Below, piece after piece: positions 30,997 through 33,544 of a DNA stretch of 64,000 bases (positions within the stretch are counted from its first letter, which is position 1; every line of letters begins with the position of its first letter). Source of the stretch: Tetraselmis striata (Eukaryota > Chlorophyta > Chlorodendrophyceae > Chlorodendrales > Chlorodendraceae); the NCBI GenBank assembly GCA_006384855.1, contig VCJN01003009.1, positions 62,001-126,000 on the forward strand, written 5' to 3'. A program made the position numbers and the translations under genes. Under the pieces are notes generated by a model that saw only the letters and a program-made list of their open reading frames with translations, searched no databases and was not told the DNA's origin.

Positions 30997-31548
30997 ATGA
31001 TGCGCCACACTTTCGGGACATCGGAGTCGGCGATCGAGTTTCCGGGCGGGGCGATCGAGATGGGGATGGACACTGGGGACGTTCGGATGGTTTTCCTCGA
31101 GATGTTCGGGAAGGGGTTCTCGTTCGCGACGGATAGCATCGAGCCGTCCGTGGCCGCGTTCACGCTTTCCGCGGGGACGCCGGCCTTCACCCGGATCGAC
31201 GTGGGGATCGACGCGAGCGACAACGACGGGGTTCAGAACATGATCCTCCTGGTGTCGGACACGCAGACCACCGCGCCCACCTCCGCGGAGATCAAGGCGG
31301 TGGGCGTGTCCCTCGGGGGGTCGACCCAGGCGTACGCGGTCACGGGGCTGGAGCCCGACACGACGTACTACGGGTGGTTGTTGGCCCGCGACGGGAGCGG
31401 CAACGAGAGCGCGGTGACCGCGTCCACCCCCGCGAGCCTCGCGACCGCGGCCGACACGGCGCCGCCGACGCTGGACGCGTTTTCGCTGTCGGGCACGACC
31501 TGGTCGACCGTGGACGTGACGTTGTCCTTCACGGATCTTGTGGCATAA
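30997..31548 (+). pseudogene. N-terminal part of an FN3-repeat adhesin, cut by an insertion
   Basis: 183 residues. Residues 50-145 form one complete fibronectin-III-like repeat (EPSVAAFTLSAGTPAF ... GLEPDTTYYGWLLARDGSGN). A second repeat begins (PPTLDAFSLSGTTWSTVDVT) and stops after LSFTD, where the frame runs into TTGTGGCAT and a stop. The missing half of that second repeat opens the protein at 32285. So this was most likely one gene with the 32285-33544 sequence. The last residues (LVA) are encoded by the promoter motif of the next gene. Confidence 0.65.
31538..31546 (+). promoter_or_regulatory. TTGTGGCAT motif at the left edge of the inserted cassette
   Basis: TTGTGGCAT followed by AAGAGCAA and the ATG at 31555. 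Same core as the motifs before 28297 and 28675. It lies exactly where the FN3 repeat breaks off, so the inserted pair seems to have brought its own viral-type promoter. Confidence 0.5.
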
Positions 31549-31554
31549 GAGCAA

Positions 31555-31773
31555 ATGAGTAACTCGGTTGTTCTTATGAACATCCACCAGTTCAGGTCGA
31601 ACGCGCCGACCGTCGCGTCGTTCGTGGGGCGGAACACGCTCCTGGGGTTCACGAGCTCGGTGCGGACCAATTCCCTGGGCCACGAGGTGTCCGAGATCGC
31701 GAGCCGGCGGAGCGTCGATCTGGATTTCAGCGATCCCTCGGTTCACGGTCAAATTTTATTCCGAGACAAATAA
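31555..31773 (+). CDS. Unknown small viral protein in inserted cassette
   Basis: 72 residues (MSNSVVLMNIHQFRSNAPTV ... GQILFRDK). No membrane segment and no motif I recognise. The gene ends directly against the ATG of the next gene (31774), so the two form a tight pair and may act together. Composition is similar to neighbouring viral genes. Confidence 0.5.
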   Translation: MSNSVVLMNIHQFRSNAPTVASFVGRNTLLGFTSSVRTNSLGHEVSEIASRRSVDLDFSDPSVHGQILFRDK

Positions 31774-32280
31774 ATGAGTACCGGTTCGGGTTCCGACGCC
31801 CACGCCAGTATCGACATCGATAACCCTTTGCTCCTTCGGTGGCGCGAGATGTCCCGAGCTCAGCGAACGCTTCACGAGAACGCTTACCGATACTTCAAGA
31901 AACGGTACGATGGGGTGATATACAGCAACATTCTGATAAGTTTGGTGGTCGGGTGCGTGAATATCGTTTTCGGGATCAAACACACCGGCGAGATCGGGAT
32001 AGCCGTCACCGTTTCGGGGTGTCTGAGCCTCCTCGCGGGGGCCGTTACGAGCGTGTCGAATGCCATGGGGTGGTCGGAGCGTTACAACAAGCACGACGAG
32101 GTTTCCACGAGGTTCTCCGAGCTGGTCCGGGAGATAAACATGGAATCGTTTTTGGGCACGCTGGACGACGGGACGTACCGCGACATGTCCGACTTCATAC
32201 GCCACGTCGCCAGCGACATCACGAGGCTCGAGGAAAGGGCGCCCCAGGTGCCGAAATGCCTGGAAAATCGCTCTTCATAA
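31774..32280 (+). CDS. SLATT-like two-transmembrane protein
   Basis: 168 residues. An amphipathic N-terminal helix region (LLLRWREMSRAQRTLHENAY, then RYFKKRYDGV) is followed by two hydrophobic helices. These are IYSNILISLVVGCVNIVFGI (about residues 49-68) and GIAVTVSGCLSLLAGAVTSV (about 75-94). A long charged helical tail follows (NKHDEVSTRFSELVREI). This W-x-x-x-S-x-x-Q-x-x-H ... two-span ... charged-helix layout fits the SLATT domain. In bacteria SLATT proteins are predicted pore-forming effectors of anti-phage systems; related proteins occur in large algal viruses. Here it may act on the host membrane or on rival viruses, but that is inference. It is the second gene of the cassette that splits the adhesin. 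Confidence 0.5.
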   Translation: MSTGSGSDAHASIDIDNPLLLRWREMSRAQRTLHENAYRYFKKRYDGVIYSNILISLVVGCVNIVFGIKHTGEIGIAVTVSGCLSLLAGAVTSVSNAMGWSERYNKHDEVSTRFSELVREINMESFLGTLDDGTYRDMSDFIRHVASDITRLEERAPQVPKCLENRSS

Positions 32281-32284
32281 AGAA

Positions 32285-33544
32285 ATGAGCGGGTTCTCGG
32301 AGATCCGCCTGTACCAGAACACCGCGAACACCGTGCCGACCGGGACGTACACGGTCGTGACCTCGGATTTTATCGATTCCGCGACGGCCACCATCGCCCA
32401 GAACGCGAGCTACGAGTACGAGGACGGGCAAAAGACGGTAAGCGGCCTGTCGCCGGGCACGGCCTACTGGTTTTGGGTGGAATTGATCGACTCGGCGGGT
32501 AACTCGAGCGGGATCCAGCCGATCGGGAGCCAGGAAACCCCCTCCGTGACCGCGATCGACGGGTCGCTGGCGACGGTAACCTCGACGAATCCGACCTTTG
32601 ATAAGGACCAGTTTTCAGCGGATTACATATTCGACGGGAGTTTCCTGTGGGACAACCACATATTTGCGAGCCCGGAGAACACCCCTCCCGTCACGATCAC
32701 GTTCACCCTGAGCGAGCCCAAGAAGATCGTGGGGTTTCGGGTGTACTCCGCCACGAGACTCACCGAAAACGAGCCCCATAGCTTCCCCGGGACGGTGACA
32801 TTTTATCGGGGCGTAACGGAGCTGGTGAGCAAGTCGCTCCAGCCCGGTGATTGGGCGGTTGGGGAGACGAACGCGGGGGCGACGGTCATGCGAAACGATT
32901 ACGCGGACGTGTTTTTCGAGAACACCCAGGCCTCGAGCAGCTACGCGATCAACTGCACGTGGTATACGGGAAACCTGTCCACCCTGATCACCATCGTGGA
33001 GCTCGTGCTTTACGAGGGCGTGAACCCGCTCCCCATTCCCGCGCTGACGGATTACGCCGACCAGGGATACACCGTCACCGAGTCGGGCAACGCCGCTGTG
33101 AACTATTTAGGTTGGCGAGCGTTCGACAGGATAAGCGGCGCATCGTTTGAGGCGTGGGTGGCCGATCCCAATGAGACCGTGCCACATTTCCTTGGCGTTC
33201 AACTTCCGGGGACCGCCACGGTCACCGGCGTACGGCTTTGGAATACGGAAGCATGGGATCACTTGTTGGTGAGGTTTTGCAAGGTCCAAGGATCTCACGA
33301 CGGCTCAAACTGGGACACCCTTGCCGTTTTCACGAACATGGTGTACACCGTGATCCCCTCAGCGGACAAAGCGACAAACACCTTGTTCCAGGAGGACTTT
33401 GATTCCGATGATATCCCCACGGACGCCGCCTACCTCTTTCAGGGAACCGTCACAAACACCGTGTCGTACTCTCATTACCGCATTCTTATGGATGTTGACG
33501 AAGGCCCGCCCCCCCGGTTCAGCGAAGTCGTGTTCCTCGCGTGA
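32285..33544 (+). CDS. C-terminal part of adhesin: half FN3 repeat plus two discoidin-like domains
   Basis: 419 residues. It opens in the middle of a fibronectin-III fold (SGFSEIRLYQNTANTV ... LSPGTAYWFWVELIDSAGNS). Two beta-sandwich domains of F5/8 type C (galactose-binding-like) character follow. The first is about residues 95-255 (FDKDQFSADYIFDGSFLWDN; KKIVGFRVYSATRLTE). The second is about 260-419 (YLGWRAFDRISGASFEAWVA; LGVQLPGTATVTGVRLWNT; RFCKVQGSHDGSNWDTL). Such domains bind glycans, so it is a candidate cell-surface-binding protein of the virion. The missing first half of the FN3 repeat is at the end of 30997-31548. Confidence 0.65.
   Translation: MSGFSEIRLYQNTANTVPTGTYTVVTSDFIDSATATIAQNASYEYEDGQKTVSGLSPGTAYWFWVELIDSAGNSSGIQPIGSQETPSVTAIDGSLATVTSTNPTFDKDQFSADYIFDGSFLWDNHIFASPENTPPVTITFTLSEPKKIVGFRVYSATRLTENEPHSFPGTVTFYRGVTELVSKSLQPGDWAVGETNAGATVMRNDYADVFFENTQASSSYAINCTWYTGNLSTLITIVELVLYEGVNPLPIPALTDYADQGYTVTESGNAAVNYLGWRAFDRISGASFEAWVADPNETVPHFLGVQLPGTATVTGVRLWNTEAWDHLLVRFCKVQGSHDGSNWDTLAVFTNMVYTVIPSADKATNTLFQEDFDSDDIPTDAAYLFQGTVTNTVSYSHYRILMDVDEGPPPRFSEVVFLA

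What the first reader, a model, noticed from the sequence alone, without database searches (positions are those of the whole stretch)
30997..33544. Viral FN3/discoidin adhesin gene split by a two-gene cassette carrying a SLATT-like protein
The protein at 30997-31548 stops in the middle of its second FN3 repeat (after STVDVTLSFTD). The protein at 32285-33544 begins with exactly the missing second half (SGFSEIRLYQ ... GTAYWFWVELIDSAGNSSG). Repeat 1 in the first protein shows the full pattern. Between them, about 750 bp carry two tightly packed genes with a virus-type TTGTGGCAT promoter at the left edge. This looks like a mobile or horizontally acquired cargo module that landed in a receptor-binding gene, possibly trading adhesion for a membrane-active function.
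Basis: partly seen in the sequence, partly recalled or inferred. Interest (0 to 1): 0.87.

Follow-up and report, generated by a model that had tools for sequence, protein, structure and literature searches.

The report
Virus fibre joint split between genes
In a family of small viruses lodged in a green alga's genome, one protein domain is kept as two halves in two separate genes, probably so that the halves snap together and hold an exchangeable host-binding tip on the virus fibre.

Summary
P1 (30997-31548) ends after strands A-B of an FN3 domain and P2 (32285-33544) begins with the rest, with a 72-aa and a SLATT-like gene between. In the host genome (very probably Tetraselmis striata), of 87 P1 hits 41 have this same four-gene order, down to 37% SLATT identity; in 33, P1 and P2 lie on opposite strands 5.5-15 kb apart; in 4 the halves are adjacent genes without a cassette; 1 is a relic and 8 have no P2 hit nearby. 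None of the 79 with both pieces looks fused. A chosen set of 24 P1-type tails and 20 P2-type or link heads, from genome and database, covers complementary parts of FN3 profiles, and both halves are under purifying selection. A second such joint is split in one lineage but one intact FN3 in others, where 14 of 15 have Met at the split form's start position. Best reading: a natural split-FN3 joint linking fibre proteins, with tip and SLATT gene exchangeable around it. Assembly in trans is inferred, not shown.

The parts
30997..31548 (+). P1: fibre/stalk protein, 183 aa
   Evidence: ORF; 43 database proteins at E <= 0.001 with the A2 profile, the last 15 being general FN3 proteins
31147..31443 (+). 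intact FN3 domain of P1 (residues 51-149)
   Evidence: AlphaFold2, blocks at pLDDT 95-98; Foldseek to FN3 domains
31453..31545 (+). P1 tail: first part (strands A-B) of an FN3 domain, then stop
   Evidence: profile positions 1-30 of 107, E 0.00029; predicted hairpin
31538..31546 (+). TTGTGGCAT, candidate late promoter motif overlapping the end of P1
   Evidence: 3 exact copies vs 0.47 expected
28277..28285 (+). same motif before the 28297 gene
28654..28662 (+). same motif before the 28675 gene (putative major capsid protein)
31555..31773 (+). 72-aa protein gene, function unknown
   Evidence: 43 own-genome hits, pieces included
31774..32280 (+). SLATT-like protein gene, 168 aa
   Evidence: 58 own-genome hits, pieces included; Pfam SLATT families in some relatives
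32285..33544 (+). P2: tip protein, 419 aa
   Evidence: ORF; two Tetraselmis gene models of the same length
32285..32539 (+). P2 head: remaining part (strands C-G) of an FN3 domain
   Evidence: positions 35-100 of 101 of the fused-joint profile, E 1.5e-9, starting at residue 5
33110..33337 (+). F5/8 type C (discoidin) domain of P2
   Evidence: PF00754 E 4.4e-8, above cut-off
29948..30934 (+). putative minor capsid/penton gene directly upstream of P1 (label by position and recall; no Pfam match)
28675..29907 (+). putative major capsid protein gene (label by position and recall; Pfam and PDB sequence searches gave nothing useful)
26961..27683 (+). A32-type packaging ATPase gene
   Evidence: PF04665 E 6.9e-14

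Best explanation
The gene boundary inside the FN3 domain is an old, maintained joint of a polinton-like virus fibre. P1 ends in the A-B hairpin of an FN3 domain; P2 begins with strands C-G of one. The two proteins are made separately and the hairpin of P1 completes the half domain of P2, joining a conserved stalk to a variable host-binding tip (discoidin or laminin-G type). One lineage has a middle 'link' protein with a half domain at each end, so segments could be chained. The 72-aa and SLATT-like genes occupy the intergenic slot of such a joint; SLATT is an exchangeable accessory membrane protein. Shown: the boundary, its conservation, its independence of the cassette, purifying selection, and a fused version of one joint. 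Inferred: physical pairing in trans, the stalk/tip roles, SLATT as a membrane pore.
For: Complementary halves: 24 of 24 chosen tails at profile positions 1 to 30-34; 20 of 20 chosen heads from 32-38 to 100-101 of the fused-joint profile. Tally of 87 P1 hits: 41 with cassette, 33 on opposite strands, 4 adjacent without cassette, 8 without a P2 hit within 20 kb, 1 relic; none of the 79 with both pieces looks fused (the four adjacent ones were read). Opposite-strand lineage read directly: P1 in L067 and L068 ends ...ISDTA and ...ISDA, P2 in L062 and L064 starts just before strand C, which speaks against cis splicing and frameshifting. Link proteins with half domains at both ends, in the genome and in six database proteins. 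Fused counterpart: link heads align from residue 1 at position 32 of the intact FN3 of other lineages' P1 in 9 of 10, and 14 of 15 intact forms have Met there (alignments). Pooled pN/pS: tails 0.51, heads 0.41, intact FN3 0.45. Tip exchange: L018 and L021 heads are 99% identical, the 69 residues aligned after them 45%. Of 27 P1-type database proteins fetched, 22 end in such a tail.
Against: No direct evidence of pairing. The P2 model failed (mean pLDDT 46.6), so the half fold of P2 rests on sequence profiles. Some tails score weakly (C_L070 E 0.057, F_L024 E 0.01); against the fused-joint profile several tails, the window's among them, are not significant. With the intact-repeat profile most heads align only from position 40 on, and one (L018) from 20. 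Five of the 27 fetched P1-type proteins, all Tetraselmis gene models, lack the tail, and so do two genomic copies read: L046 ends in other sequence and L072 runs on into the next gene. Copies within a lineage are not independent: about seven lineages. Many copies carry stops. The joint seen fused in nature is joint 1, not the P1/P2 joint, and its first-gene tails match only weakly. For the database relatives I saw proteins, not gene order.
Confidence: 0.6

Rival explanations
1. The half domains are self-sufficient: P1 hairpins pair with one another (for example in a trimeric fibre) and the P2 head folds alone; the FN3 resemblance is ancestry only.
For: AlphaFold2 folds the P1 tail as a free hairpin at pLDDT about 80; PLV fibre proteins are thought to form trimers (PMC12220804, section 13 part 1).
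Against: The halves stay complementary over 24 tails and 20 heads; the fused version of joint 1 is one FN3.
Confidence: 0.2
2. A two-gene cassette inserted into one intact adhesin gene, splitting it.
For: Layout in the window; SLATT is exchanged as a unit in C370.
Against: The split exists without cassette and on opposite strands, and none of 79 hits with both pieces looks fused; the four-gene order is kept to 37% SLATT identity.
Confidence: 0.07
3. The halves are joined at RNA or translation level (intron, frameshift, readthrough).
For: An endonuclease VII-type gene in one such slot recalls endonuclease genes carried by introns.
Against: 33 of 87 have the two genes on opposite strands; at joint 2 of the link lineage the gap is 21-28 nt and the relative frame differs between the four copies.
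Confidence: 0.04
4. The half domains are decaying leftovers without function.
For: Many genomic copies carry stop codons; some copies lack the tail.
Against: pN/pS of tails 0.51 and heads 0.41, like intact FN3 0.45; same boundary in 22 of 27 fetched relatives.
Confidence: 0.05

Closest known systems
Donor-strand complementation in chaperone-usher fimbriae (recalled; the DraE paper PMC5625045 was seen only as a listing with abstract start)
   Same: An incomplete Ig-like fold is completed by a neighbouring subunit, giving a non-covalent fibre joint.
   Different: There one N-terminal strand is donated; here a C-terminal A-B hairpin would complete an FN3 domain, in a eukaryotic DNA virus, and a complete fused form exists in relatives.
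Polinton-like virus fibre proteins (PMC12220804: abstract, passages and section 13 part 1 read)
   Same: Modular fibres with laminin-G or discoidin domains in PLVs; SLATT genes widespread (868 in cryptophyte PLVs).
   Different: A term search found no fibronectin or FN3 in its main text; no half-domain joint is described in the part read.
Split Ig-like domain tools such as SpyTag/SpyCatcher (recalled)
   Same: One beta-sandwich domain used as two complementary pieces.
   Different: Engineered and covalent; here natural and presumably non-covalent.
Free-standing homing endonuclease genes in viral gene clusters (recalled)
   Same: An endonuclease VII-type gene (PF02945 E 1.3e-12) sits at a joint in C1597.
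   Different: Seen in one copy; homing not tested.

Membership tests
FN3 domain (PF00041) | Profile match above curated cut-off | tested here: not met
   P1 16 bits and P2 15.2 bits against a cut-off of 25
FN3 domain (PF00041) | Fold like solved FN3 structures | tested here: met
   P1 model, intact domain: 25 PDB matches with E <= 0.001, nearly all FN3 or FN3-based proteins by description. The split domain itself was not modelled
Donor-strand/fold complementation | Complementary incomplete domains in separate proteins | tested here: met
   with the weak cases named under evidence against
Donor-strand/fold complementation | Physical completion of the fold between subunits | not testable with these tools
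   Single-chain prediction only
SLATT | Match to a SLATT family above cut-off | tested here: not met
   Window protein 16.8 bits, cut-off 26.5; best of the 7 A1 members SLATT_4 E 7.8e-5, bits not shown
SLATT | Two transmembrane helices | not tested
   Two hydrophobic stretches seen by eye; no predictor run
Polinton-like virus | A32-type packaging ATPase | tested here: met
   PF04665 E 6.9e-14
[quoted passage not shown]
   28675 gene: no PDB sequence match at E <= 1, one chance-level Pfam match; fold not predicted
Inserted mobile cassette | Uninterrupted site in relatives | tested here: not met
   None of 79 P1 hits with a P2 hit nearby looks fused; 8 more have no P2 hit
F5/8 type C (discoidin) | PF00754 above cut-off | tested here: met
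   33.7 bits, cut-off 28.2

The most novel reading that the evidence does not exclude
These viruses build their fibres from separately encoded segments linked by natural split-FN3 snap joints, including link proteins with a half domain at each end. Because many such viruses share one algal genome, a stalk could carry the tip of another virus, so that tips are interchangeable at the protein level as well as by recombination, with membrane-active genes parked in the joint's gene slot.
Probability: 0.4. Interest if true: 0.78.

Novelty: new variant of a known kind. Interest (0 to 1): 0.62.

Why it matters
A protein domain kept as two halves in two genes, even on opposite strands, over lineages whose neighbouring proteins are under 40% alike is unusual. 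If the halves assemble, it is a natural counterpart of donor-strand joints and engineered split domains, in a eukaryotic virus fibre. It gives a testable account of how polinton-like viruses vary their tips, and a warning that mid-domain gene ends in viral genomes need not be broken genes.

Tried and rejected
Viral-contig scans for relatives: five scans gave one locus, L069, whose gene order looks like a phage with an FN3 protein; not used as a relative. Phage collection: no match for P0018. P2 homologue search: 4 proteins, one of them (P0047) only a general FN3 protein. P2 structure: pLDDT 46.6, not used for fold searches. Homology of the 72-aa protein with the 90-aa gene after P1 in the opposite-strand lineage and with the first gene of the link lineage: suggested by eye; BLASTP gave one 11-residue match and nothing, hhalign probability 16.9%, E 0.0015; not claimed. 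Intron idea: rejected on strand and frame grounds. Hidden first half upstream of P2 and link starts: 14 upstream extensions read, the 7 longer than 10 residues searched, none significant (best E 0.55). PDB sequence search for the capsid gene: nothing. Literature: the searches listed no paper whose listing points to split FN3 joints in these viruses; only open-licence PMC papers are held, and I read passages of four.

Full report
What is there. The window is part of contig C2428 of a 224-Mb genome. P2 has Tetstr1/TSEL gene models of 419 aa, 94 and 88% identical, so the host is very probably Tetraselmis striata, an alga reported to host polinton-like viruses (passages of PMC7805220). The isolated T. 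striata virus TsV-N1 was not compared; a term search of its paper found no 'fibronectin' or 'fiber'. The element has an A32-type ATPase, a protein matching PF02399 and putative capsid genes (labels by position and recall). P1, a 72-aa gene, a SLATT-like gene and P2 follow.

The observation. P1 has an intact FN3 and then a tail. A profile of 24 intact repeats, tails excluded, was run on the 24 tails of the same proteins (11 genomic, 13 from the database, chosen by me): all match from position 1 to 30, five of them to 31-34, of 107 (weakest E 0.057). Of 20 heads (10 P2-type, 10 link proteins) all match the later part (E at most 5.7e-5); seven alignments start at 33-36, twelve at 40-68 and one, L018, at 20; one head also has a chance-level match at 3-27. 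With a profile of the other, fused FN3, 20 of 20 align from 32-38 to 100-101, 19 of them from residue 1-6; P0046 starts at residue 21. That profile recognises many tails only weakly and not the window's. Control: 0 of 15 other FN3 proteins end after strand B (several look like contig-cut fragments). Of 27 P1-type database proteins fetched, 22 end in the tail; five Tetraselmis models do not. Among genomic copies read, L046 and L072 do not.

Not an insertion. Lineage letters are mine. Searches covered the genome for each piece apart. Of 87 P1 hits kept of 109 rows, 41 have both cassette genes between P1 and P2 on one strand, 33 have P1 and P2 on opposite strands (5.5-14.9 kb between starts), 4 are adjacent with a gap under 100 nt, 8 have no P2 hit within 20 kb, and 1 (C1328) is a relic with many stops. 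The 41 fall into five lineages (A 8, B 8, C 14, F 5, G 4) and two unplaced. In C, SLATT is 37-40% identical to the window's. In the opposite-strand lineage I read two P1 (L067, L068) and two P2 (L062, L064, the latter interrupted further on): P1 ends ...ISDTA or ...ISDA, P2 starts just before strand C.

A second joint. In C1391, C803 and C1597 a first gene ends in an A-B tail, a 209-aa link protein starts at strand C and ends in an A-B tail, and a third starts at strand C. C2652 has the link and third gene; its first gene looks internally deleted. Between first gene and link lie a SLATT-like gene (C1391, C803), an endonuclease VII-type gene (C1597) or nothing (C2652). C276 has what looks like a broken SLATT-like frame there. 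Between link and third gene there are 21-28 nt in these four, with differing relative frames. Six database proteins (P0009, P0010, P0012, P0015, P0016, P0019; ena and lgn contigs, origin not shown) have the link shape. In lineages B, C, D, F, G and eight database proteins the corresponding FN3 is intact; the link's first residue falls on position 32 in 9 of 10, and 14 of 15 intact forms have Met there. First-gene tails match weakly (E 0.0037 and 0.0069). The same half pair thus occurs split and fused, the usual argument for interaction (recalled).

Selection and exchange. Pooled pN/pS is 0.51 for tails, 0.41 for heads, 0.45 for intact FN3, 0.46 for SLATT, 0.47 for the 72-aa gene; synonymous changes are near saturation, so these are rough. 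C370 matches the window at 98% in P1, 94% in the 72-aa gene, 70% in SLATT, 99% in the P2 head and 94% in the rest of P2; its SLATT is 80% identical to that of C1851. L018 and L021 share 99% of the head but 45% of the 69 residues aligned after it; L021's P2 frame is interrupted. Tips are discoidin in A and C and laminin-G in one of two link-lineage third genes scanned.

Structure. P1: pLDDT 81.7, FN3 at 51-149, hairpin 158-168/171-179; Foldseek finds FN3 domains. P2: uninformative.

Working model. P1 is probably held at the capsid by its N-terminal part (inference from its place after the putative penton gene). Its hairpin completes the P2 head. P2 binds surface sugars (inference from discoidin). 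SLATT may be a pore; PMC12220804 (section 13 part 1) hypothesises endosomal escape for PLV SLATT proteins. TTGTGGCAT may start a late transcript for the 72-aa, SLATT and P2 genes (inference).

Noticed in passing
L041:2093-2671 (C1597): Endonuclease VII-type gene (PF02945 E 1.3e-12) in the slot of a split-FN3 joint where sister elements carry a SLATT-like gene.
   Followed up: partly
L014 (C370:21847-22353): SLATT gene alone replaced by a divergent allele between near-identical flanks.
   Followed up: yes
21620-25471, - strand: Long fibre-like ORF with four 165-nt repeats (23768-24562) and a second overlapping long frame 22060-23577; no Pfam match. Possibly a frame break.
   Followed up: no
33606-34110: Three nested inverted-repeat pairs just downstream of P2.
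   Followed up: no
G000:C1533:28523-35263: Two elements of different lineages face each other, their P2 genes under 2 kb apart.
   Followed up: no
G000:C1404:42159-49544: Two copies of the cluster 5,445 bases apart with the same scores.
   Followed up: no
15307-16053, - strand: Weak C-5 cytosine methylase match, below cut-off; a related match above cut-off lies next to P1 in L067 of the opposite-strand lineage.
   Followed up: no
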